From: Marasmius tenuissimus
Taxonomy: Eukaryota > Basidiomycota > Agaricomycetes > Agaricales > Marasmiaceae
Assembly: GCA_029532415.1 (NCBI GenBank)
Contig: JAQOTA010000015.1
Coordinates: 1,054,001 to 1,118,000 of the forward strand
Direction: 5' to 3'
Length of the DNA stretch: 64,000 bases
Positions 10,445 to 56,821 of this stretch are shown piece by piece. The notes beneath the pieces are model-generated. The model was not told where the DNA came from. It made no database searches and was given only the letters and a program-made list of their open reading frames with translations. The translations under genes were made by a program, and so were the position numbers. The stretch's first letter is position 1. Every line of letters begins with the position of its first letter.

Positions 10445-10605
10445 GCACGGCACAGACAGAGCTGACTGTACTATCAGCTTATAAACCTTCAATCTCAGTC
10501 AGCAGATTAGTTGTTGAACCTCTGGGAGTCTGGGACTATCATCTATTCGATAATACCGCTGCCTGCGGCTCTTTATGTCCGACCATGTCCTACTTAAACC
10601 CCAGG
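10445..10605 (+). promoter_or_regulatory. EH2 promoter carrying blocks shared with EH4 and EH5
   Basis: Contains GCACGGCAC, then GAGCTGACTGTACTATCAGC with TTATAAACCTTC, then CAATCTCAGTCAGC (10490-10503), and close to the gene TACTTAAACCCCAGG (10591-10605). The same blocks occur in the same order and similar spacing upstream of EH5, and partly upstream of EH4. The distal block could bind an activator and the proximal AT-rich block could be the core promoter. The matches are seen directly; the function is inferred. Confidence 0.6.
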
Positions 10606-10672
10606 CCAGGCAGAAAACAGCTCACAACGAAACAGAAGTCCTGCGGTACACTCGATCCAAGTTTCTAACACT

Positions 10673-12001
10673 ATGCGTCTCTCAATCCCCTCTCTCGCCA
10701 CCGTCTGTGTCGCCTTGGTAACTCTACCACTGGGACCCGCTGTCTCTGCAGCAGCAGCTCCGAGCCTCAGTAAACACGATTTCCTTGACCCATCCAACTA
10801 CAAAAACACGACTACCTCTCGCGGAATCGCATACAACTATTACTTCTCTCCCCCCGCCAACGACGACAGGCGTTTCCTCGTTTTCCTGCACGGATGGCCC
10901 GGACTTTCGTATGACTACCGCTTCCAGGTCGACTTTTTTAAAGAGGCTGGGTATGGAGTGATCATACCAGATATGTTGGGCTATGGAAATACAGACAAGC
11001 CAACGGACCCGGAGGTGTACAAGTCGAGCTTAATCAGTCGAGACATCGTTGACATCCTGGACGCCGAATCCGTCGATAACAACGTCGTCGTCGTTGGGCA
11101 TGACTGGTGAGTACTGAGAGCACTCCTCGCTCCAACCTCACGGACTCACCGCTTACTAGGGGTTCCAAAATTACTGCAAGGATTGCGAACTATTTTCCGG
11201 ATCGATTCTCTGCCTTTGGATTCCTGGCCGTTGGAAACCTCGGACCAGCATTCTTTGATACACCCTACCCGGTGCTGAATAACCTCGTGAGTGTATCCGG
11301 AATCCTGATTAGTATGGCTAGGGAGAACTGAACGATTTTTCAGACGAAAGCGGTAATGGGGTATGAGAGCTTCGGTTACTGGGACTTTTTCTCTCGGCCT
11401 GGTGCACATGAGATACTTGAAGACCGGCTCGAGTCATTATTTAGTCTGGCTCATACCGCGAACGCAGTCGAGACGATTGTGAATTGGGCTCCGTTAGGCG
11501 CGTTGGAGGCTTGGGTTACGAGCGATCGGAGGTCAGCATCTACTGTTTGGACACCAGAGGTAAGAATTACGCGTTTGGTATGCAGGTCAAGTTTTTCTTA
11601 CTACTTTACTTACAATAATAGGAAGAGGCACACTATCTGAAGGCCTATGGCGTCCCCGATGCCGTCGAAGCCTCGTTGGCCTGGTACAAAGTCCTGGTTT
11701 CGGGTATAGAAGCCCAAGACAACAAGAGTGAGGTCCTCTTTCATCCTATGTCGCACTACGATCTAACATCCGGCTCTCGGGGGTAGATATCTCACCGGAG
11801 AATCTTAATGTCAAGAAACCGGTCTTCTTTGGTGCCGCTTTGCAAGATTTTGTAGCTACCGCCCCATCGCAGGTCAAGGCAACGCTGGACTCCAGTGCAA
11901 ACTCGACCGTCCATTTGTATAACTCAGGGCACTGGGTTCATTGGGAGACGAAGGATGAGGTCAATCGTGATCTTCTTGCATGGATCGAAGGGCTAGAATA
12001 G
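10673..12001 (+). CDS. secreted epoxide-hydrolase-like alpha/beta hydrolase EH2, 365 aa
   Basis: Five exons (10673-11106, 11160-11286, 11344-11559, 11622-11727, 11787-12001) close in frame. Residues 1-26 form a signal peptide ending near AVSA. The hydrolase fold shows the oxyanion motif HGWP (73-76), the nucleophile Asp144 in GHDWG, a cap region with the Tyr-rich lid, and the catalytic His343 in GHWVHWE. Family enzymes open epoxides by adding water through an aspartyl-ester intermediate. Dehalogenases share the Asp nucleophile, so the substrate is open. Where EH4 and EH5 have a Lys-Arg site after the leader, this copy has SKHD, so pro-peptide cleavage may be lost. It runs towards EH3 and shares promoter blocks with EH4 and EH5. 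Confidence 0.88.
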
Positions 12002-12324: not shown

Positions 12325-13631
12325 TCATTCCAATCCTTCGACCCAAGTGAGCAGGTCCCGATTGACTTCGTCCTTCGCCTCCCACTGAAGCCAGTGTGTG
12401 GCATCATACAGACGGATGGTTGAGTTGGCGCTGCTATCCAGGGTCGACCTGATCATCACCGGGGCGAGCACCGCGAAATCCCTCACACCCGCACCGAAGA
12501 AGACCGGTTTGACCACAACAGCGTTTTCCGGCGGAATACCTGGCCAGGTGTCAGATCAGGATGTTTTGAACTTGTAGGCGGATATCACCTTCGCTATCTC
12601 TTGCTTCAATTCCGGAGACTACGACTTTATACCAAGCTAGCGAGCCTTCCACGGCACCAGGAAGGCTATAAGCTTTAAGATAGACTTCCATTTCCTGGGC
12701 AAGCATTGTGGTGAGAAAGGAACGGACATACAAAAACAAAGCGCCCACCTCGGGAGTTATAACACTTTCATTAGTTTCAGACCTTCTGTCATTCCTCACC
12801 CAGTCTTCCAATTTACCTACTGGCGCCCAGTTAACGAGTACCTCCACCGGATCCGCAGTATAGGCCAAACTGAACATCGACTCCAAATGGTCTCCAAGCA
12901 CCTCGTGTGCGTCGGGTTGAACGAAAAAGTCCCAATAACCGAAATTTTCGTAGCCGAGCACGGCTTTTGTCTGGAAGATCGTTCAGCGAAACCAAGTCTC
13001 GTCATTAAAAATGTGCGCGAGCTGACCAGGTTATTCAATTCCGAGTAAGACGTAGAGAAAAAACTAGGTGGGGTGTTTCCGAGCGCCAGAAACCCAAAGG
13101 CCGAAAATCTTTCAGGAAAGTAATTTGCGAGTCTTGTTATGATTTTGGCGCCCCTAGAAGCAATAGAAGGAAAGACGTTCGACCATAGTAGAAAGCGGCA
13201 GAAATGATTGAAACCAACCAATCATGTCCAATGACCACAGCGTCGTTACCAACTGACTCCCCATCCAGGATATCGACAATGTCCCTGGTGATCAAACTTG
13301 ACCTGTACGCCTCCAGGTCCGTTGGTTTGTCCGTACTCCCGTATCCTAGCATGTCGGGAACAATCACTCCGTACCCTGCTTCCTTGAAAAAGTCGATCTG
13401 AAAGCGGTAGTCGTATGAAAGTCCAGGCCAACCGTGCAGGAGAACGAGGAACCGCTTGTCGCTGTTGGCAGGGGGTGTGAAGTAGTAGTTGTAGGTTATT
13501 CCGCGCGAGGTTGTAGTATTTTTGTAGTTGGTTGGATCCAAGACCCGTCTGGCAAGGTCCGAGGCACTAGAGATAGCGGGTAAGGCCAAAGCAATGACGA
13601 CTGTGGCCAGAGACGAAGCTGAGAGATGCAT
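12325..13631 (-). CDS. secreted epoxide-hydrolase-like alpha/beta hydrolase EH3, 360 aa
   Basis: Five exons (13631-13219, 13153-13027, 12970-12749, 12694-12589, 12539-12325) close in frame. Exons 2, 4 and 5 have the same lengths as in EH2. A signal peptide (MHLSASSLATVVIALALPA) is followed by a dibasic LARR site. Motifs are HGWPGLSYDYR, the nucleophile in GHDWG, and a C-terminal DATHWLQWEAKDE, where the usual Gly before the catalytic His is replaced by Thr and the second His of GHWVHW is lost. It is the most divergent intact copy, with a two-residue insertion in exon 3 and a weak first donor (GTTGGT). Its promoter also differs: a plain TATATAAAT box and none of the blocks seen at EH2, EH4 and EH5. 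Intact and probably active, possibly with changed specificity. Confidence 0.85.
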
Positions 13632-14386
13632 GGGTAAAAAGAGAGAGACTTTCTCAATCTAAGAAAAGCTCGACTGGAGGTGAAGGATTTATATAGTCGC
13701 GCCATCATTGATAACCTTGTTAGGCCTGTGATGTCGGGACCGTCAGTGACTCCATCCAACCGGAGACGAGTTCGTCTGAGTGAGAGGTTGGTAAGCTGCT
13801 CGGTGGTACAGTCAGCTGGTTCTTGGCGAATTGCTTTTGTGAGTTGCGAGTTGCTAATGCAAATGATACGGCTTCAACGAGGTGACCCAAGACATACTAG
13901 AGCCCAGTTGCGAGATCATTTGTGCGCATCGCTGGAGGAGGCATTCGTGTTTTCGTAGACCAGTGGGCCCGGACGTTAAGGTTCTACCAGCAAAGACTGG
14001 GAGGTCGTACTTGGAGCGTCGGTAGCCTTGCTGCTGCCTAAATGGCATGGAGAAGGTCATTCAATGACTGTATTTGATGAATAAGAGTCGTCACTGACCA
14101 TCGTAGGGGCAGAACGCACGTACTGAATGCTATACATATATCCTGTCTCTTACTCTTTCCTTTCCAAACAAATTTTCGGTATTCGGCACCTCGAAAAGAT
14201 GCAGCATCAAGGGGAGAAATGGCCATACACAACAGCGATGAGGGAGTGATGACTGGAGGGAGACGGGGTTAGCTCGTGGTTCGGGACAAGGTGGTGGTTC
14301 TTGATCAAATGTTGAAGCGCGTGAGTGACTCAGTGAGTCATTTTGGGGGTACGGTTTATCACTATCTTTCTTGATCATCGAACACT
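13632..14386. other. bidirectional promoter region EH3 / PGK-HET
   Basis: Space between the divergent starts of EH3 and the PGK-HET fusion. On the minus strand a TATATAAATCC element (about 13685-13697) lies 55 bp before the EH3 ATG. On the plus strand no clear TATA precedes the fusion gene; a CT-rich stretch (actatctttcttgatc) directly upstream of its ATG is typical of fungal start regions. No other gene is supported. Confidence 0.55.
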
Positions 14387-17300
14387 ATGTCCCTCGAAAA
14401 TAAACTCGCTCTTACCGACCTCGAACTCAAAGGAAAACGCGTTCTCATTCGTGTCGATTTCAACGTGCCTTTGCAGGATGGAAAGATCACCAACCCAGTT
14501 GTGAGCGCCTTCTGTGCAAGAGTCTCTTCCGACTCATGATCGACACCGACTCGATCGACAGCGTATTGCAGCTGCATTACCCACTATCCGTTATGCTCTC
14601 GAGAACGGTATTGGCCTTCAGCTATCACACGTCCTACGGAATCTCATTCTATTTGCTCAGGCGCTGCCGCTATTGTACTTATGTCCCACCTAGGTCGTCC
14701 CGATGGCAAGATTGACGACAAGAACTCCCTCAAGCCCGTCGCGGACGAGCTCGAGAAACAGCTTGGCAGATCCATTACCTTCCTGAACAATTGCGTCGGA
14801 CCTGAAATTGAGCAAGCCGTCAACTCAGCATCCGGTGGCGCCATCATTCTCTTGGAGAACCTGCGTTTTCACATCGAGGAGGAAGGTTCAGTCACTAACA
14901 AGGATGGGACGAAGATCACGGCGGATATCACCAAAGTCCGAGAGTTCGAGGAAGGTTTGACCAGGCTCGGTGATGTCTACGTCAATGATGCTTTCGGGAC
15001 TGCCCATCGTGCCCATTCCAGCATGGTGGGAGTGAAGTTGCCCCAGAGGGCCGCTGGCTTCCTCGTCAAGAAGGAACTTGAATTCTTCACCAAAGCTCTC
15101 GACAACCCCGATCGACCTTTCCTAGCTATCCTCGGTGGTGTAAAAGTCTCCGATAAGATCCAGTTGATGGAGAACTTGTTGGACAAGGTATTTTATTCTA
15201 TAATGTACTCTACAGTATGCTATCCAACCTCTCATTTCATATATACAGGTCAACATGCTCATCATCTGTGGAGGAATGGCTTTCACTTTCAAGAAGATAC
15301 TGGAAAACGTCTCCGTGAGTACCGAGACATTTTTCTTACTCTCAGTCGAATCATGCTCAATCTCCCCGCAAGATCGGAAACTCCCTGTTCGATGCCCCAG
15401 GATCGAAGAAGGTTGCCAGCTTGGTGGCAAAGGCGAAGAAGAACAACGTCGAGCTTATCTTTCCGACTGATTATATTACTGCTGACAAGTTCGACAAGGA
15501 TGCAAGGGTACGTCTCCCCACCTCCCCAGCAGCGTCATGACCGTTGGTTCTCATAAACGCGATTAGACTGGTACCGCCGCCGACTTGGAGGGCATTCCCG
15601 AGTGTTGGATGGGTCTGGATACTGGCGAAAAGAGCCGTGAGCTATACAGACAAACTGTCTTGAAAGCCAAGACGATTCTCTGGAGTGGGTAAGTCCGGGG
15701 TTCAACCCGCCCTGATGCTTACCCTCGGTTTCACTGAACGCGGCTCCTCTTCCTTTAGACCTCCGGGCGTCTTCGAATTCCCCGCCTTTGCCGACGGATC
15801 CAAAGCCTTGCTGGACGCGAACATCGAAGCTGCGCAGAAGGGCGCCGTCGTTATCGTTGCAGGTGGTGATACCGCAACCCTAGTCGCTCAACATGGTGCG
15901 CTGGAAGACAGACTCAGCCACGTTTCTACTGGTGGAGGTGCGAGTCTGGATCTTCTTGAGGGCAAGGTGGGCACCCGTGTCCCGTGTATCTATAATCGTT
16001 TCTTAAACTGTATTTACAGGTTCTTCCGGGTATTGCCGGACTGAGCGATAAGAACAAATTGCGCGACGGCATCAATATCTACCTCGTTCGCGTCAGTGAG
16101 CGCCCGGACAGATCACTCTTCATTGAACACAAACCGAACGCGACCACGAATGATGATTACATCGCCATCTCCCATGTTTGGGGCACCCCCGAGACCATTC
16201 AAAATGTTCACGTAGATGGAGCTGGTACCGTACAGCTTAGCCCGGGAAAGAAGGATATCCTATCCATCCTTAGACGAGAGGATGTCTGTGGTCGAGCTTG
16301 GTTCTGGATGGACCTGTTCTGCATTGACCAGAGTGAGGGTGCATCTATCAGCATCACAGACCAGCTTATGGCCATTCCGGCGATCTACAAGTCGAGTAAA
16401 TGTGTCAAAATCCTCATCGAGACGTCCGTTTGCGACCGTTGGCAGAATCAGGCATCTGCCGTCATCGCCCGTAGCGAGTCGACAGTTAATATGGAGGTAT
16501 TTCAGCTAGAGGAACTAGCGCACGGACGCAAGTGCCCCTACTTCCTCTTCGACGATCCTTGGTTCGAGAGACTTTGGACCCGCCAGGAAGGGCTGTATGG
16601 CTCGGTGCTGGAAGTGGTGGTTCTGAACCCTGTTTCCTGTGCTCGGTTTCAGAATCATAGCCCCGCAACGAGTGGAAGGACAGGATGGGAGGCAGAGGGG
16701 GTCAATCTTGCGAAAAGAACCGTCGCCGAGTCCTTCTTATACGATAAACTGGCGTATCATGGATTGTCGGATGCAGAAACGAAAATGTTTGATTTATATC
16801 TCGACTTTGTCTACCGACATCGCGTAGACATCGGGCGCTTTGGTGGGGTAGCTGGACCTGCTGCAAACTACTCCCCCATTACGGAGGCATGGCGAAGTGG
16901 GCGGACCACAACCAAGCCTCGGGATTATGTGCTTGCAGTCTTCCCGGATATTGCAGGGTATCGTGTGCCGCCAAATGCGCGTAAGATGCGATTCCCTGAA
17001 CTGGTTTCGAATGCACTTGAACAGGCTGCTGTTCGAGAGCATTTCAATATAGCCGCAAAAATACCAAGAGGAATGGTTACCGGCGGGACATCCTCCAAAG
17101 AGAGCACCACCCCTTGGTTCCCCAACGAGCCTTTGAGCATCAGTCAGGCCTTTGATTCACTTGTAGAACAACGTTTAGATGAGCCAAAGACCGCTGGTGC
17201 GCCGCAATCTAGGTTCTTCAGTGTTGTCCGTCGGGTAAAGCTGGAAGTGGTCGATTTCAGCCAGTCAAACATGTCTAGGATCAAGGATATTTGGGTGACC

Positions 17301-17849
17301 ACTGCAGATACGATCAAGCATGTGGCGCGCCTTTCGCCATCCGGCCCATGCACAGGAACGTCGAGGAAGAACGTGCAGATTGATCAAGGTCTACTCAATC
17401 GTTACTTTGTTCATCAGTTTTTGCCATTCGCTGTGGAACAACACTTGCCCAGAAATAAATTGGACGCCCTATACGCTGCGACAGGTGTAGTATCGTTCGA
17501 CCGGGTGAAGAATGTGTCGGATGACACCTTCATTACCGAGCTCGGACGATTTCTGGTTTGCCTTGTATGCGGCACCTCCCTGCAGACTGCGGATGTCGTT
17601 CTCGAGTCGGCCGATTTCAGAGTTGTTTGTACGGAATATGGAAAGTTATTGGCATTGCTTCGGCGGGATGTTCTGTCTATGGATACGAAGGAAGATCTCC
17701 GGCTCATCGGCACAGATGTGTGGGGATTACAAGGTTTTCTAGTCGGACACGGCACACAGAATATTCAAATCGTTGGACGGACAGTCATACCTCATTCGAA
17801 GTTCTGGGGTGAGATGACACGGGTAATGGAAAGTAGTCATACACAGTGA
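14387..17849 (+). CDS. phosphoglycerate kinase fused in frame to a HET domain, 1015 aa
   Basis: Eight exons (14387-14500, 14562-14607, 14661-15187, 15249-15314, 15373-15507, 15567-15688, 15759-15966, 16020-17849) close in frame. Residues 1-417 are a complete phosphoglycerate kinase: [89 protein letters not shown]. The family's normal C-terminal end ([11 protein letters not shown]) has no stop. The frame continues [15 protein letters not shown] into a HET domain with [33 protein letters not shown] and [11 protein letters not shown], then ~450 further residues. PGK makes ATP from 1,3-bisphosphoglycerate; HET domains trigger incompatibility-type cell death. Substitutions near the nucleotide site (WSGPPG, AGGDTAT) suggest a diverged paralogue. 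The final intron joins GGCAAG to GTTCTT, leaving no room for a PGK stop codon. Confidence 0.85.
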
Positions 17850-18371: not shown

Positions 18372-19712
18372 CTATTTTAGCCTTTCGATCCATGCAAGAA
18401 GGTCGCGGTTGACCTCATCCTTCGCCTCCCAATGAACCCAGTGTCCAGCGTTGTATAAGTGAATGGTCGAGTTCGCACTGGTATCCAGTGTTGCCTTGAT
18501 CTGCACCGGAGCAATCGCTACGAAATCTTGCAGAGCGGCACTAAATAAGACTGGCTTCTTGATAACAAGGTTCTCCGGCGGAATGTCTACACCCAAAAGT
18601 CAGAGCTCAGTACAGTGAGGATGGAGAGGCGACCTCACTCTTATTGTCCTGGGCTTCAATATCCGAAACCACGATTTTGTACCAGGCCAAAGAGGCCTCG
18701 ATAGCATCGGGAAGACTATAGGCCTGCAGATAATGTGCCTCTTCCTAACGGTATGTCGAAATACTTGAGACATAATTGACCTAACAATTGGACGTGGATT
18801 CTTACCTCTGGGGTCCAAACAGTGGATGCCGATCTCCGATCGTTCGTCACCCAAGCCTCCAGCGTACCTAACGGAGACCAATGCTCAACGAATTCGACCG
18901 CATTTGTGCTATGGACCAAACTGAACAACGACTCGAGTCGGTTTTCGAGTATCTCATGTGCACCGGGTCGGGCAAAAAAGTCCCAATAGCCGAAGTTCTC
19001 GTATCCCAAGACCGCTTTCGTCTGGAATATCGCTCAGTTCTTCTAACCATACCGACCAGGATCTGGAATGGACTCACGAGGTTGAGCGCCACCGGATACG
19101 GTGTTTCAAACTTCAAGGACGCCGCTCCAAGGTTTCCGACAGCAAGAAAACCAAAGGCAGAGAATCTCTCCGGGAAATAATTCCCAAGCCTTGAAGCGAT
19201 CTTGGAGCCCCTAGTAAACAGTGCTAGTGAGTCCCCAAAGATGTTTTGGCGAGGAATGCACCTAGTCAGTGTACTCACCAGTCGTGCCCAACGACGACGA
19301 CGTTGTTATCAACAGATTCGGCGTCCAGGATATCCACGATGTCTCGGCTGATCAGGGTGGACTTGTACATTTCTGGGTCCGTTGGCCTGTCTGTGTTCCC
19401 ATAGCCGAGCATGTCTGGTATGATCAATCCATACCCTGCCTCCTTGAAAAAGTCGGCTTGGAAGCGGTAGTCGTACGAAAGTCCGGGCCAGCCGTGCAGG
19501 AAAACGAGAAAACGCTTGTCGTTGCTGGCGGGGGGCGTGAAGTAGTAGTTATAGGTGATCCCGCGAGAGGTGGTCGCGTTCTTGTAGTTGGCTGGGTCTA
19601 GAAAATTGCGTTTACTGATGCCTGTAGCTGCGGCAGCCGACACGATAGGCGCTAATGGTAGGAATACCAAGGCGGCGATCCCGATGGTGAGAAATGTGAT
19701 TGAGAGACGCAT
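18372..19712 (-). CDS. secreted epoxide-hydrolase-like alpha/beta hydrolase EH4, 367 aa
   Basis: Five exons (19712-19279, 19210-19078, 19021-18806, 18744-18639, 18586-18372) close in frame; exon 2 is two codons longer than in EH2 and EH5. I chose the ATG that begins MRLSITF (19712), which aligns with EH2 and EH5, over an upstream in-frame ATG at 19754. A signal peptide is followed by ISKRN, a Lys-Arg site where a Kex2-type protease could cut. Motifs are HGWPG, the nucleophile in GHDWG and the catalytic His in GHWVHWEAKDE. The mature start DPANYKN matches the other copies. Upstream it shares CTACTTAAATCCCAGG and GATCTCAGTCAGC with EH2 and EH5, so joint regulation is likely. Substrate unknown. 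Confidence 0.88.
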
Positions 19713-19767
19713 ACTCATGCAAGTTTGGAGTGGACTTCCGTTTTGTTGTGACATGCTTTCTGCTTCG

Positions 19768-19920
19768 CCTGGGATTTAAGTAGTAGAGTACAGTCGGACA
19801 TCAAGGGGCGCTGGCAGGCCGCAGTAGTATATTCGAATAGAAATGTGGCCATAATCCCGACTCAAGTTCAACTTGGCTGACTGAGATCGAAGGCCTATGA
19901 GCTAGCTCCGTCGGTGCTGT
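19768..19920 (-). promoter_or_regulatory. EH4 promoter carrying shared blocks
   Basis: Minus-strand TACTTAAATCCCAGG (19768-19782) lies about 55 bp before the ATG, and CGATCTCAGTCAGC (19876-19889) about 110 bp further up, as at EH2 and EH5. The most distal block (GAGCTGACTGTACTA in the others) is only partly kept (GGAGCTAGCTCATAG). Confidence 0.55.
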
Positions 19921-41760: not shown

Positions 41761-44700
41761 ATGGCCTACGAAGACTACAACACTGATGGTGCAGCGGTTC
41801 AGGCTCAGGGCGTTTATCAACAGTTTTATGATGCCTATGGGAATGACAATGATTCCCAACAACAGCAACGACATCAACAATCCTACATTACCGGAACGGG
41901 AACGAGTTCGAGCGAGGGAAGCGGTGAAGAATCGATGCTCGGGATGGGTGACTTTACTGAAATGGATATGAGGGAATATGGTGGTATGACTATGGACGCT
42001 CTGGGAGCAAGCATGCCAGGGATGCATCCCGTTCGAGTGTCAATTCCTCAATACATGTCGAGCACGCCAATGCTAGCTCCTGGAGGCGGGGCAGAGGTAT
42101 TGCCGGCTGGACTATTGAATTCCTCTATGGCTCCTCCGCCAGGTGTATCGTGGTACGCAAATTCCGGTTTGCTTGAGTCCATGCAGGAGTACGTTTGAGC
42201 GTTATCTTCTATCTGAAATCACACCCTAATTTCCTTCTCATCATCCAGATATTCTCCAATATCAATACAGCACCTTCACCGACAGGGTTCGCAATCGCAA
42301 TCCTCACAACCACCCTCACAAACTACGCAGTCTCCGTTTGATTATGATGCTTATCCCTCGAGCGCGACGCCAGCCACGGCGTCATCGTCGACAGTCGCTG
42401 GGACACCATCGACTCCGGCGACCTCTACAGCCGCCGATCCAGAATCTCGCCCTCCATCCTCGGTCCGTTCCCCGCCTTCACCACCCTCCTCCGCCTCCAA
42501 AGCACTCAATCTGAATATTCTAAACGGTAGTATCAACCCAGCGCACCCGATTACCGCATCGCAGTTAAGCGCTATCGGGATTAGCAGCACTGCGAATGCT
42601 AGCCCGCACGCGGGTTTGAACGCCCCTTCTTCGCTCGGTCTGCCCGTCTACAGTGCCTCGGGCTTCGATTTGCTCTCAGTCATGGCCCGTGTAGCCACAC
42701 GGCCCGACCCCAAGGTTGTCCTGGGTCCCGTAGATCTGACGAGCTCATTCGTTGTCGTCGATGTTCGGAGGCACGATTGTCCAGTCATCTACGTCAGCCC
42801 CACCTTCTGTCGTTTGACAGGATACGATGAGAGTGACGTTATCGGTCGCAATTGTCGATTTCTCCAAAGTCCCAACGGTATACAATCTCGAGGCGAGGTT
42901 CGACAATACACATCTCACGAGGCGGTTAAACACCTCAAAAAGAACCTCGTCGATAACAAGGAATGTCAAACATCGATCATCAACTACAAAAAGAATGGAG
43001 ACGCTTTTATCAACCTTGTTACAGTCATCCCTATTCGTGGTGGGGAGCTGGGGGCATCTGGCGATGAGGACAAGGTTGTTTATCATGTTGGGTTTCAGGT
43101 TGACCTAACGGAGCAACCGAATGCGATCTTGCAAAAGTTGAAGGATGGGACGTATATCGTGAACTATACGGCCAACAACCCGGTCGCTATTGCTCCTTTG
43201 AACCCATTGAACCGGTTGTTCCAGCAGCAGCAACATCGGGGACTTGGGGGCATTGGGGCTGGGAGTACAGCGGTGGGGTTAGGATTTGGAGGCGCCGCAG
43301 GTGGAGGCTTCGGAGGCGGAATGGCGGGAGCGATGGGGTACGGAGGCCTTCATACCATCAGTGCGAAGGACAGGAAGCTTCATGCGATCGGGCAGCCGGT
43401 GGTTAGTCAGGAATTTCGGAAGCTGTTGGATGAGCCAGAGTTCTTGAAGAGCTTCCCAGTCACAACGGGGGCGAATGCTGACGCTGGGGCGGCTTCTACT
43501 ACGACCACTACTGCGGCCAATTCAGGGACAGCGGACAATGAGGACACTGCAGAGTCTGGAAGTCGGAGCGGGACGCCTCCGCCACCGAATTCGAACTCGG
43601 GGAGGGACAGCCCGCAACCTAACCCCCAAAATAGTTCGTCGTCAATAACGATTCCCTCCTCCAATACTACAGTACCCCACGCATCGAGTATGAATCACCC
43701 ACTCTCATTGATCCTTCTCGAGTATACACCCGATTTCCTCCATGTCGTCTCGCTCAAAGGCGACTTCCTATACGTCGCCCCCGCCGTTCGCCGAGTGCTC
43801 GGGTACGAATCACATGAACTCGTGGGACAGAGCCTAGTCGACATCTGTCACCCAAGCGACCGAGTCCCGTTGGTCAGGGAGTTGAAGGAGAGTTCGTCCA
43901 GTTCCGTTGCGTCTGGCGCGGGGGGCGCGGATGACGGTGGTGGCTCGAAGGACAAAGACTTACCAGACGACGTACAGAGCCCCACGAACGCTTCTGATCC
44001 ACATGCCCTCATGGCTTTGCATAGGCCTAGGACTGTGGATTTGTTATTCCGAGCTTTGACCAAGTCGGGAAGGTACGTTTGGGTTGAGTGCCGTGGGAGG
44101 TTGCATGTCGAACCGGGGAAGGGACGAAAGGCAATTTTGCTCAGTGGGCGGGCAAAGGAGATGGCTGGGTTGAGATGGGAGGTCGTGAAAGGTGCAAGCG
44201 GGGGTGTCAGGGGAGTCATTCATGGTGTGGGGACGGGGGTTGGGAAGGACAAAAACAAGGAGAAGGACGGTAAAGACGGGTTGGGTAAAGAGACCAACGG
44301 GTCCAAGAAGAGGAAAAAGGCTGGTTCTGGTGGCGGCGACGAGGAACGTACGGATCCTGTGCACTCGACTACGGAAGAGGCGGACGTCAAGTCAGAGTTC
44401 TGGGGAACCATCACACGAAATGGCATCATTCTTGTTGTCACGTCTGGTGTACGCGATGTGTTAGGGTTTGAGGAAGGGGAGTTGACGGGTAAGCATATCG
44501 AACAGTTCTTAGTTACTGGCGAGGAGCACAGTCAACTGGGGCTAGTCGAGGAGATCCGAAACGTTCGTGCTTCCGTTGGGTCAGCACCTGACTGGGGCGT
44601 CAGGACATCTAGGTGCTGGATGACGCGGAAGAAACAGTCCCTCTCAGATGAAGATGTCGCATCGGAGTCTCAACCTGGACAAGGAAACGCGGTAGAAGTG

Positions 44701-45570
44701 GAGGTCGTTCTATACCCGAGCTCTGTGGACGACTCGATCCGTAATGCGGAACCACAGACGATCAGTCCTGCAAATGTGATCTACCAGATCCGTGCGGTTC
44801 AGCCTTCCTTGTCCTATTCGCAGCACCCTCATATTCAGCCTCATGTACCGGTATCACCTGTCTCTCCTCATCTACAAGCCGCCTCGTCAGACTCTCTGGA
44901 ATCTGAGCCTGATGTCCTTCATCCACTTGAAGATGACGTTTTCGAGCCTCTCGACACTACCCGTGGTTCATCATGGCAATACGAGTTGCAGCAATTACGG
45001 TTCAGAAACGATAGACTGAAAGAAGAGATCAGGGTGATGGAAGGAGAACTGGAAAAGGCTTCGCTGAGCTCCGGGGGCGTAGGACTACGGGCAAGTGTAA
45101 GCAGCTCGAGTGGTGGGAGCTTCTCGGCTAGGAGACACTCATTGCCCAACGTCATGTCCCCCACGACTGCGAACCCTCATTCTCGTCAATCTTCGGGGTC
45201 CCAGCAACAGCACCCGTATATGCAGTATTCCCCGGCGGATACAGGTGCAGGGCCCAGCCAATCACATTATCCGATCCCAGTCCCTGTTTCTATTCCAGTC
45301 AGTTATGATGCTCGTCACCAAGGCCAGCCATTAGGCTCACCCGAATACCCTTCCCAGCAGCAGGATTGGAGATCGGTGTACATGCCCCCGCCCGCTCATC
45401 CCCACACCCAGCCACACGCACAGATGCCAGTTGCTATGAACCTGACGCTCCCTCCCCGTTATGCCCAACAGTCGCAGCAGAGGTACCAGCTCCCACATCA
45501 GCCACCTACACCTTCGTCGCTGAAGAGAACGTGGGATGCTGGTGGCAATGGTGGGGGAGGGGACACTTGA
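41761..45570 (+). CDS. wc-1: white collar-1 blue-light receptor / transcriptional regulator, 1249 aa
   Basis: Two exons (41761-42188, 42249-45570) close in frame. The N-terminus is Gln/Ser/Pro-rich. The LOV domain (about residues 300-410) has YVSPTFCRLTGYDESDVIG then GRNCRFLQ with the flavin-reactive Cys345, followed by NYKKNGDAFIN and GFQVDLTEQP. A Gly-rich linker leads to PAS-B (about 625-740, LILLEYTPDFLHVVSLKG) and PAS-C (about 860-960, WGTITRNGIILVVTSG), with a Lys/Arg-rich NLS-like patch (KKRKKAG, ~828). Near the C-terminus lie a short coiled coil (LRFRNDRLKEEIRVMEGEL, ~1055-1075) and Gln/Pro-rich tails. In fungi it senses blue light through FAD and works with the zinc-finger partner WC-2. 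No GATA finger is visible, as is normal for basidiomycete WC-1. Confidence 0.95.
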
Positions 45571-54436: not shown

Positions 54437-56821
54437 ATGTCGAACGACCAGTTGCTGTACGTATGCATCTACCGACCTTTGAATTTCCTTCCTGACCTAG
54501 TTTAACCACTCAGTGATCTTGTCTTCGTTCTCGATGCCACAGGAAGCATGGGACCTTGGATCCGTTCTGCGGAGAACAGCATCAACAACATCGTCAAGCA
54601 GATTCACGACTCTAAGAAGCTTGCTTCTCCCGCTGCTCTTCGTGTCGGAGTTTTAGCTTATCGAGACGTCGAGAGTGAAAACTTCGTCGAGTTCCTCACG
54701 AAGCCTTGCGCGCTCACTTCCAATATCGACACGGTCCACAAGTTCTTGAAGTACCTCGGGGCTACTGGTGGCGGAGACGGTCCCGAGGCCGTAGCAACGG
54801 CGTTAGATGTTACGATCAACGACGCCAACATAATGGGCTGGCTACCCTCCAGCAAGGGCGCTCACCAAATCCTTGTTCACATCACCGACGCGCCTCCTCA
54901 CGGTCTCGAGGATGGTGACCCCAGTGAGTTGCTGACTCGATGCAAACGAGTTATTACTCAATCATCTGCCTCAGAGAACCCAACCAAAGATGCGAAGACC
55001 GCCGGAATGTTCAAGAACATAATCAGGACGAACGAAATCATGAAAAAGAATAACTTTACCTATGTATGGCTATCTTGAACATTCGTCACGTCTACAGCTG
55101 ATGTTCTTCAATAGTTCGTGGTATCTTGCGGTGAAATGGGTAAAATCTACAAGGTGTGTTTGTTTCTCGCGTTCCTTTCTCTGGGTTCAAGACTAATCGT
55201 GCAAACAGTGGGCTGTCCCATTCTACCGACGAGCAACGTCGGGAAACGGGTACATGCTTCCCCTGGTTCGCGCCGATCTTCTTCCGAATACAATCACGGC
55301 TCTCGCACTCGAGAGTTTGGCCCTTGACACCGCGCTGGAGGAAATGAGGGAAGAACTTAAGAAGCTCAACGTGGGCGAGAAGCCTTCCTTTGCCAACGAC
55401 GAAACTATACCAAAGGACCGACCGACGTTTGATGCGCTCTTACACACCGTTGTTGCGCCGGCAACGACAGAAGCATCCGAACATCGCCAGTCTACGACTA
55501 CTGAAGTAGGATTTGCCCTTTAGCTCGTATAATGGAAGTCTGACTCCTTCAAAGGCACCCATGACTCCGGAAAAGGCGATCAAAATCATTCACAAGATCT
55601 GCGAGGCGAAGGGGATCAAGGTACCGACGTTGAAGACGAACATTTCCTACAACTTTACCGGAAACGCCCTCCATAACTGGAACATCATGGAAAAGGCAAA
55701 GACACACGAAGACATTGTCGGCGGACTTCCTACGGTAAGATATTATCTTTCAGGAGTCATCGACTCTCACTTACCTTGGTGAGACAAATAGCCTGAGGGT
55801 ATACCAATCACCGGTTCTGGTAAACAGGCGGTGGAGATTGTCTACGAGCCCATTTCCGAAGCCCAAGTATGTCAGCTTAGGCAATAGTGTGGTGTTCGCG
55901 ATCTAATCATCTGCCTTTCAGGTCGAGAGAATGGCTTACAGGTACAAGGCGAAGTACATGGGTCCCCAGTCTAACAACCCTGCCGGGAAGTTAGAGGCTG
56001 CGACCTTCAACACGATGGAGATTCGCCCTTGGCAGAATCCGCAGGCACATAATGTAGGCACCATCCAGCTGAAACTTCCCAACACCTGCCCTCCGAATGT
56101 TCTCCTTGGTGTCAATTGGCTTGACATGAATATCCTCCGTATTAAGTCCCACATTCTGGAGGTTACCAACAACCGTGTCCAAGTCGACCTGGAGTCCTGG
56201 GGTGACACCGTGCAGTACTCTGCTGGAGTGTCGTTGCTCAGCATCCCGAAAAGTGATACCGATATACAGTTCGGTCGGTTCAACACGATGGATGACCACG
56301 CTTGGACGCAGCCGAAAGTGTCGACGACAAGGAGGATCACCTTCACTCGCGAGTATTCTGCCCCTCCCAAAGTTGTCGTATGGCTCGAATCTGGTGATAC
56401 TGGAGCTGCACAGAACTGTCGTATCATCACGAAAGCAGAAGATATCACCACATCCGGGTTCACTCTTCATATCGATACGTGGTCGGATACCAACATCTGG
56501 TCTGGAGGAGCGTCCTGGATTGCGTACTCCGCTAACAGGAATGACATTCGTAGTGGCACTTTTGGCACCAACGACATTCGGGTTTGGAACAACCCTCAAC
56601 TGGAGAACAGCGCCCGAATCAGTTTTAGCGGCGGACCTTTGTCCAAGACGCCACAGGTGTTCGCTGCGTTGAATATGTTGGACATCCAGAGCGGGCGGAA
56701 CATTCGAGTCAAATTGAGGGTGACCGATGTTTCGTCTGGTGGGCTGACTTGGCATCTGGATAGCTGGTACGATACGATTCAGTATGCTGCTGGAGGGTCA
56801 TACATCGCGTTCGACCATTAG
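54437..56821 (+). CDS. von Willebrand A domain protein with three tandem H-type lectin domains, 682 aa
   Basis: Seven exons (54437-54456, 54514-55063, 55115-55153, 55209-55448, 55510-55734, 55792-55866, 55922-56821) close in frame. The intron at 55449-55509 has a weak GTTGTT donor and is the least certain. Residues ~7-200 form a vWA domain with a metal site (DATGSMG, GGGDGPEA, HITDAPPHG), like the vWA part of alpha-kinase-type proteins. A middle region of ~190 residues is not recognised. From about residue 400 come three H-type lectin repeats of ~90 residues, each opening with a FNT/FGT-x-x-x-RxW-type core (TFNTMEIRPW, RFNTMDDHAW, TFGTNDIRVW) and ending in a DxW strand (DLESWGDT, HIDTWSDT, HLDSWYDT). 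H-type lectins bind GalNAc-type sugars. With no signal peptide it is probably cytosolic; binding foreign or damaged glycans is an inference. Confidence 0.85.

What the first reader, a model, noticed from the sequence alone, without database searches (positions are those of the whole stretch)
14387..17849. In-frame fusion of complete phosphoglycerate kinase to a HET domain
Seen: the PGK exons run to the family's natural end ([11 protein letters not shown]) and, with no stop codon, straight into [12 protein letters not shown] and a HET domain; 3048 coding bases close in frame over eight exons. Known: PGK is a glycolytic enzyme; HET domains execute incompatibility or cell-death responses in fungi and are usually joined to NACHT/WD-type sensors. 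Inference: the PGK half may be a bait or metabolic sensor controlling the HET effector, or the HET half may regulate a moonlighting PGK. I know of no described protein with this layout.
Basis: partly seen in the sequence, partly recalled or inferred. Interest (0 to 1): 0.88.

Follow-up and report, generated by a model that had tools for sequence, protein, structure and literature searches.

The report
Glycolysis enzyme fused to death domain
In a mushroom-forming fungus, a spare copy of a basic sugar-burning enzyme has become joined end to end with a protein of a family linked to fungal cell suicide, and the same join exists in a second species where the enzyme half looks dead, which suggests the enzyme has been re-used as a switch or bait for the death part.

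Summary
The fused gene is real. Eight exons (14387-17849) encode 1,015 aa: complete PGK, a 3-codon linker, then a complete stand-alone HET protein. The genome, probably Marasmius tenuissimus, keeps a separate ordinary PGK with the same introns, ending ...NKL-stop exactly where the fused copy reads ...NKL-RDG. M. crinis-equi has the same fusion (P0001, 75% identity) at the same residue. In both, the HET start methionine is gone (Ile, Val), so an ATG-started complete HET domain needs the PGK frame (window). The HET half keeps its family's near-invariant residues (1 of 102 changed in each). The PGK half changed 14 (here) and 19 of 203; the worst of 117 ordinary PGKs changed 6. M. crinis-equi lost Asn25, Arg65, Arg170 and Lys219; here Asn336, Gly371 and Ala214 changed. 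Yet the PGK frame is far too conserved for neutral decay. Most likely a duplicated PGK became the N-terminal regulatory or bait domain of a HET effector. The layout is firm; the mechanism is inferred. No transcript data. No paper found describes it.

The parts
14387..14500 (+). PGK-HET exon 1 (start codon; PGK N-terminal domain)
   Evidence: same 114-nt exon in the canonical PGK paralogue
14562..14607 (+). PGK-HET exon 2
   Evidence: 46 nt in both copies
14661..15187 (+). PGK-HET exon 3
   Evidence: 527 nt in both copies
15249..15314 (+). PGK-HET exon 4
   Evidence: 66 nt in both copies
15373..15507 (+). PGK-HET exon 5
   Evidence: 135 nt in both copies
15567..15688 (+). PGK-HET exon 6 (carries the Asn336-to-Ser site)
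   Evidence: 122 nt in both copies; site
15759..15966 (+). PGK-HET exon 7 (GGGD nucleotide loop, Gly371-to-Ala; one codon longer than in the paralogue)
   Evidence: 208 vs 205 nt
15967..16019 (+). intron 7, 53 nt; if retained, the frame gives a 431-aa PGK-only protein that stops at 16042-16044
16020..17849 (+). PGK-HET exon 8: last 14 PGK residues, linker, whole HET protein, stop TGA 17847-17849
16059..16073 (+). fusion junction: Leu420 (last residue of the canonical PGK) - Arg-Asp-Gly linker - ATC (Ile424) in place of the HET start methionine
16158..16589 (+). Pfam HET domain (residues 453-596)
16308..16310 (+). first in-frame ATG of the HET half; it lies past the YIAISHVWG core, so it cannot start a complete HET domain

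Best explanation
A duplicated, intron-bearing phosphoglycerate kinase gene came to lie upstream of a stand-alone HET-domain gene in an ancestor of M. tenuissimus and M. crinis-equi. The PGK stop codon and the HET start codon were both lost, giving one reading frame (shown by sequence in two species; a single fused transcript is inferred). The normal PGK stayed in place for glycolysis, so the fused copy was free to lose catalysis. The HET half remains the effector, kept under its family's ordinary constraint (constraint shown, effector role inferred). The PGK half works as an N-terminal regulatory domain: a folded two-lobed PGK body whose ligand state, domain closure or binding partner holds the HET half off or releases it (inferred). 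It would act either as a bait for something that targets PGK (an 'integrated decoy') or as a sensor of 3PG/ADP/ATP. I favour bait or partner-sensing over metabolite sensing, because the M. crinis-equi copy has lost residues that bind 3PG and that close the enzyme.
For: Same fusion at the same residue in M. crinis-equi. HET start methionine replaced in both (M1I, M1V). Only this one copy of the HET subfamily found in the genome and only two PGK loci. Asymmetric rates: of 62 differences 39 assigned to the fused PGK, 2 to the canonical, 21 ambiguous; controls against M. fiardii 9/4/25 and Dendrothele 4/5/32. Tips 0.18 and 0.25 against 0.022. Near-invariant PGK columns changed: 14 and 19 of 203, against leave-one-out median 0, maximum 6 in 117 canonical PGKs. 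HET columns changed: 1 and 1 of 102, against median 2, range 0-8 in 42 relatives. Of 18 PGK sites with no substitution in 117 canonical PGKs, 3 are changed here and 5 in M. crinis-equi (sites picked). PGK half still constrained: dN 0.083-0.093, dS 0.91-1.09; neutral runs gave 0 of 300 stop-free copies at each of three distances. Precedents, from passages: PMC12258605, PMC3618301, PMC10890737.
Against: No transcript or protein data. No test that the PGK half contacts or controls the HET half: the fusion model was poor at the junction. Changes at paper-named catalytic or closure residues are not significantly enriched over other near-invariant columns: 2 of 19 here, p 0.39; 4 of 19 in M. crinis-equi, p 0.09 (0.33 and 0.06), so fast change may be general. 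Purifying selection on the PGK half would also be expected if it only had to stay folded. HET-driven death is reported for other HET proteins, not for this subfamily. In the window copy the 3PG-side residues tested are intact, so it could still be an active enzyme. Only two species support the history; the placement beside the M. tenuissimus PGK has modest support (90/74) and the fused PGKs are long branches. No M. crinis-equi DNA was available.
Confidence: 0.5

Rival explanations
1. Promoter or carrier capture: the HET gene gained the expression signals, 5' introns and soluble fold of a duplicated PGK. The PGK half does nothing specific beyond keeping the protein expressed and folded.
For: The HET start codon is lost, so expression depends on the PGK part. 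The PGK half has lost catalytic residues yet keeps an open, constrained frame, as a foldable carrier would. Changes are not significantly concentrated in the active site.
Against: A carrier half could be shortened or lost, but both species keep it full length: 420 residues here, and Pfam profile positions 2-379 of 379 in P0001. DNA similarity to the canonical gene covers only the gene body and 24 nt upstream, so a retained PGK promoter is not seen, though with dS near 1 it could have become unrecognisable.
Confidence: 0.28
2. Bifunctional enzyme: the window copy is a working PGK, with the HET domain localising or regulating it.
For: The 3PG-side residues tested (Asp23, Asn25, Arg38, His62, Arg65, Arg122, Arg170) and Lys215/Lys219 are intact in the window copy.
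Against: Asn336, Gly371 and Ala214 changed in the window copy; Asn25, Arg65, Arg170, Lys219 and Ala214 changed in the M. crinis-equi copy. An ordinary PGK is present. The HET half, not the PGK half, keeps its family constraint.
Confidence: 0.09
3. Annotation or assembly artefact: two neighbouring genes that only look joined, with separate transcripts.
For: No RNA evidence. No protein named as M. tenuissimus was among the 47 returned for the HET half (proteins of 558-1776 aa only). Other long fungal PGK records with unrelated domains are listed (P0053, P0061), which may be merged gene models (not checked).
Against: An independent genome has the join at the same residue. No stop, no in-frame ATG before the HET core and no HET start methionine. 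The splice into exon 8 sits where the canonical PGK has its own last intron.
Confidence: 0.05
4. Dead-end chimera drifting towards loss, kept by chance.
For: The PGK half evolves fast and loses catalytic residues.
Against: Both halves are open in both species; HET near-invariant columns are intact bar one in each; dS near 1 with dN below 0.1 for the PGK half, and no stop-free neutral copy in 900 runs.
Confidence: 0.03

Closest known systems
Stand-alone HET proteins of the same subfamily (about 585 aa; e.g. Dendrothele bispora P0003, Marasmius fiardii P0005)
   Same: Same HET domain and C-terminal region over 99% of the query; 61-66% identity between these two and the two fused HET halves
   Different: They start at M-D-I-Y-L-V-R with no PGK; in the fusions PGK plus a short linker precedes that point and the methionine is replaced
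Integrated decoys in fungal NLRs (CHK-2-derived kinase domain in Sordariales NLRs; PMC12258605, passages)
   Same: A domain taken from a housekeeping protein, fused to a putative immune protein and proposed as a decoy
   Different: Those are NACHT-type NLRs in ascomycetes with the kinase at the C-terminus; here there is no NLR, and the partner is a glycolytic enzyme at the N-terminus, in a basidiomycete
UN-24/HET-6 of Neurospora crassa (PMC3618301, abstract and passages; HET-6 as a HET-domain protein: PMC10197012 and PMC12881547, passages)
   Same: A central-metabolism enzyme (ribonucleotide reductase) and a HET-domain protein, tightly linked, interact in incompatibility
   Different: Two separate genes, and UN-24 is the working enzyme; here one fused protein and a spare enzyme copy
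het-B (BH, a HET-lectin protein, plus PII-like BP) of Podospora anserina (PMC10890737, passages)
   Same: A HET protein paired with a member of a metabolite-sensor family
   Different: Two adjacent genes, PII-like rather than PGK
Multidomain and predicted-dead PGKs of kinetoplastids (PAS-PGK, PGK-CNB; PMC7729029, passages)
   Same: PGK fused to signalling domains; some copies predicted inactive
   Different: Different partner domains and lineage; no HET mentioned in the passages seen

Membership tests
Phosphoglycerate kinase (PF00162) | full-length PGK sequence | tested here: met
   residues 9-406 match profile 1-379/379, 468 bits; 357 of 419 residues identical to the genome's ordinary PGK
Active phosphoglycerate kinase | conserved substrate and closure residues | tested here: inconclusive
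   window: 15 of 18 sites kept, changed at Ala214, Asn336, Gly371; M. crinis-equi: 13 of 18 kept, changed at Asn25, Arg65, Arg170, Ala214, Lys219; no substitution in 117 canonical PGKs, 2 rows with a gap. Four further paper-named residues (Ser392, Thr393, Gly394, Ser398) are kept in both
HET-domain protein (PF06985) | Pfam HET domain above cut-off | tested here: met
   residues 453-596, full profile, 55.3 bits against a cut-off of 22.5
HET-domain protein (PF06985) | residues near-invariant in this HET subfamily | tested here: met
   1 of 102 changed in each fused copy; leave-one-out median 2, range 0-8, in 42 relatives
HET-domain protein (PF06985) | induces cell death when expressed | not testable with these tools
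   reported for other HET domains (PMC10197012 and PMC12881547, passages)
TIR-related fold | structural match to TIR domains | tested here: inconclusive
Fungal NLR (HET-NACHT-WD40) | nucleotide-binding NACHT/NB-ARC domain and C-terminal repeats | tested here: not met
   only PGK and HET found by Pfam at E <= 0.01
Integrated decoy | fused domain derived from a duplicated host protein that is still present elsewhere | tested here: met
   canonical PGK on contig C20 with all seven intron positions shared; fused pair placed beside it with modest support, 90/74
Integrated decoy | the domain is the target of a pathogen or nonself factor | not testable with these tools
   needs an interaction screen

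The most novel reading that the evidence does not exclude
An integrated-decoy or pseudo-enzyme immune protein outside the NLR world: a glycolytic enzyme duplicated, fused in frame to a HET death effector, stripped of catalysis in at least one lineage and kept as the trigger that tells the cell when PGK (or glycolysis) is being attacked or is 'non-self'.
Probability: 0.38. Interest if true: 0.88.

Novelty: new variant of a known kind. Interest (0 to 1): 0.75.

Why it matters
[quoted passage not shown] Here a HET effector is covalently joined to a protein of known structure, ligands and assay. Whether a PGK body controls a HET domain can be tested directly. It would also extend the integrated-decoy idea from NLRs to stand-alone HET proteins and from ascomycetes to a basidiomycete, with two species that have lost different parts of the enzyme's active site.

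Tried and rejected
Structure of the whole fusion: alignment A1 mixed PGK and HET rows badly, and the model of P0001 was poor around residues 420-490 (pLDDT mostly under 50; pTM 0.57), so nothing is concluded about how the halves pack. Foldseek on the HET half gave no hit at E <= 0.001.

Over-representation of changes at active-site residues in the PGK half: not significant, whether with 17 sites or with the 19 residues named in the passages seen. Loss at catalytic sites is therefore reported as relaxed catalytic constraint, not as targeted inactivation. The 18 sites were picked after one search had shown which residues changed: 15 are named in PMC3900376 or PMC7729029, while Lys215, Asp374 and Ala214 are from recall.

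Search for the protein in print: 'phosphoglycerate kinase' + 'HET domain' + 'fusion' gave 0 papers; 'phosphoglycerate kinase' + 'heterokaryon incompatibility' gave 2, on Monascus pigment and a baculovirus prion (listing only); 'HET domain' + 'fungal' + 'gene fusion' gave 6 (listing only). By title and abstract start none describes it; only open-licence PMC papers are held.

The bacterial-type promoter scan of the junction is not meaningful in a fungus and was ignored. Long members of this HET subfamily in Trichoderma (P0037, P0046) were checked as possible other fusions; Pfam finds only HET, twice, in each.

Full report
WHAT IS THERE. The gene at 14387-17849 (+) has eight exons with GT-AG introns and a 3,048-nt reading frame for 1,015 residues. 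Pfam finds a full-profile PGK (residues 9-406) and a full-profile HET domain (453-596), nothing else at E <= 0.01. The HET part lies in one open exon with 0 stops in 596 codons; the two other frames of that strand have 17 and 26.

WHERE IT COMES FROM. The genome search found one other PGK locus, on contig C20. It encodes 419 residues in eight exons. Exons 1-7 are 114, 46, 527, 66, 135, 122 and 205 nt there and 114, 46, 527, 66, 135, 122 and 208 nt in the fused copy, and all seven intron positions are shared. So the fused copy is a DNA-level duplicate, not a retrocopy. The ordinary protein is 100% identical to a database PGK named Marasmius tenuissimus whose longest contig is 1,730,079 bases, the length of C20, so the window is most likely from that species. 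M. tenuissimus and M. crinis-equi are described as thread-blight fungi of cacao (PMC8581569, search listing).

THE JOIN. The ordinary PGK ends ...VLPGVAELSEKNKL-TGA; the fused copy reads ...[24 protein letters not shown]. The ELSEKNKL tail occurs in 2 of 117 canonical PGKs examined, those of M. tenuissimus and M. fiardii, which agrees with an origin within Marasmius. The 21 stand-alone HET relatives aligned mostly start M-D/E/K-IYLVR, at the position where the fusion has Ile. The PGK stop codon and the HET start codon are thus both gone, with a complete protein on each side. The first in-frame ATG after the join, 16308, is already past the YIAISHVWG core; a start at a non-ATG codon is not excluded.

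A SECOND SPECIES. Of the 47 proteins returned for the HET half (lengths 558-1776 aa; only the 7,993 candidates sharing most words were scored), one is also a PGK: P0001 of M. crinis-equi, 1,014 aa, labelled 'phosphoglycerate kinase'. It aligns end to end with the window protein (771 of 1,022 columns identical) and joins at the same place: NKL-PDSA-V-DIYLVR. Among the 120 listed of 5,230 PGK-containing proteins of 558-1776 aa, P0001 is the only one with PF06985 (5,110 were not shown). The same join in an independent genome argues strongly against a local assembly or annotation artefact. No protein named as M. tenuissimus was returned, so the public annotation may split or miss this gene; that is unexplained.

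HOW THE TWO HALVES EVOLVE. In a tree of 29 PGKs (26 rows chosen from the 120 listed, one part of P0053, and the two fused halves), the fused PGKs form one clade (97/84). With the non-Marasmius rows as outgroup they are placed next to the M. tenuissimus canonical PGK (90/74, not a starred branch). Tip lengths are 0.18 and 0.25 against 0.022. Two long branches can attract, but the pair also shares six derived residues besides the tail and the join itself. Of 62 differences between fused and canonical PGK in the window genome, 39 can be assigned to the fused copy, 2 to the canonical and 21 are ambiguous; for M. crinis-equi the split is 49, 2 and 27, and for two canonical controls 9/4/25 (M. fiardii) and 4/5/32 (Dendrothele). 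At 203 columns near-invariant in 117 canonical PGKs (120 listed, 3 dropped for length), the window copy has 14 changes and the M. crinis-equi copy 19; the canonical rows' leave-one-out median is 0 and maximum 6. The HET half behaves differently: at 102 columns near-invariant in 42 stand-alone relatives (4 of 46 dropped for length), each fused copy has 1 change, against a leave-one-out median of 2 (range 0-8), and the two fused HET tips (0.14 each) are no longer than those of Dendrothele (0.18) or M. fiardii (0.31). At the 90% level the lost start methionine itself shows up as M1I and M1V.

THE PGK HALF IS NOT DRIFTING FREELY. Fused against canonical: dN 0.083-0.093, dS 0.91-1.09 by three methods. 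Neutral simulations to 0.3, 0.5 and 0.75 changes per base gave mean identities of 55, 39 and 27%, and 0 of 300 stop-free copies at each distance; observed identity is 85%. So the PGK body is kept, while catalysis does not seem protected.

WHICH RESIDUES WENT. Human numbering comes from the alignment to human PGK1. I examined 18 sites, picked after one search had shown which columns changed; 15 are named in the passages seen (PMC3900376, PMC7729029), and Lys215, Asp374 and Ala214 come from recall. None has a substitution in 117 canonical PGKs (two rows have a gap). M. crinis-equi has Asn25-Asp, Arg65-Cys, Arg170-Cys, Lys219-Gln and Ala214-Pro; the window has Asn336-Ser, Gly371-Ala and Ala214-Val. 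Four further named residues (Ser392, Thr393, Gly394, Ser398) are intact in both. Arg65 and Arg170 form the salt bridges that stabilise the closed active form (PMC7729029, passages). Lys219 and Asn336 are reported essential in domain closure, Asn25 is a substrate-binding residue and Gly371 lies on the ADP-to-hinge path (PMC3900376, passages). The M. crinis-equi half is therefore predicted dead, and the window half altered on the nucleotide side but not demonstrably dead. Enrichment of changes at the 19 named residues over other near-invariant columns is not significant (2 of 19, p 0.39; 4 of 19, p 0.09).

MECHANISM. Shown: one continuous reading frame after inferred splicing, its recurrence in a second species, loss of both internal signals, different constraint on the two halves. 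Inferred: one transcript; HET half as death effector; PGK half as regulator. Precedents seen in passages make a regulator plausible: a CHK-2-derived kinase domain kept as a putative integrated decoy in fungal NLRs (PMC12258605), ribonucleotide reductase UN-24 acting with the linked HET-6 in Neurospora (PMC3618301), and a PII-like protein acting with a HET protein in Podospora het-B (PMC10890737). A carrier or expression role is the main rival and is not excluded.

CONTEXT. The gene sits among alpha/beta-hydrolase genes. DNA similarity to the canonical locus spans window 14363-15976 only, i.e. the gene body, within the 10-kb stretches compared.

Noticed in passing
window 10598-11107 (+), 13140-13658 (-), 19278-19775 (-): Three alpha/beta-hydrolase gene pieces (epoxide-hydrolase-like by recall), two upstream and one downstream of the fusion; the PGK-HET gene sits between the second and third.
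   Followed up: partly
window 42217-45567 (+): Long exon with at least two PAS regions in a 1,117-aa open frame, possibly a white-collar-1-type light sensor (name recalled).
   Followed up: no
window 55907-56818 (+): Open frame with three H-type lectin stretches (PF09458).
   Followed up: no
G000:C28:3463336-3523470: Five HET-domain matches within about 60 kb, a possible incompatibility or immune gene cluster.
   Followed up: no
window 15967-16019: Retaining the 53-nt last intron gives a 431-aa PGK-only product, a possible splice switch that separates the halves.
   Followed up: partly
P0053 (Moniliophthora roreri), P0061 (Termitomyces): Other fungal PGK records with helicase or Myb-type domains in the same protein; not checked, possibly merged gene models.
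   Followed up: no
P0037, P0046 (Trichoderma): The same HET subfamily occurs in proteins of 1,085 and 1,055 aa with two HET stretches each.
   Followed up: partly
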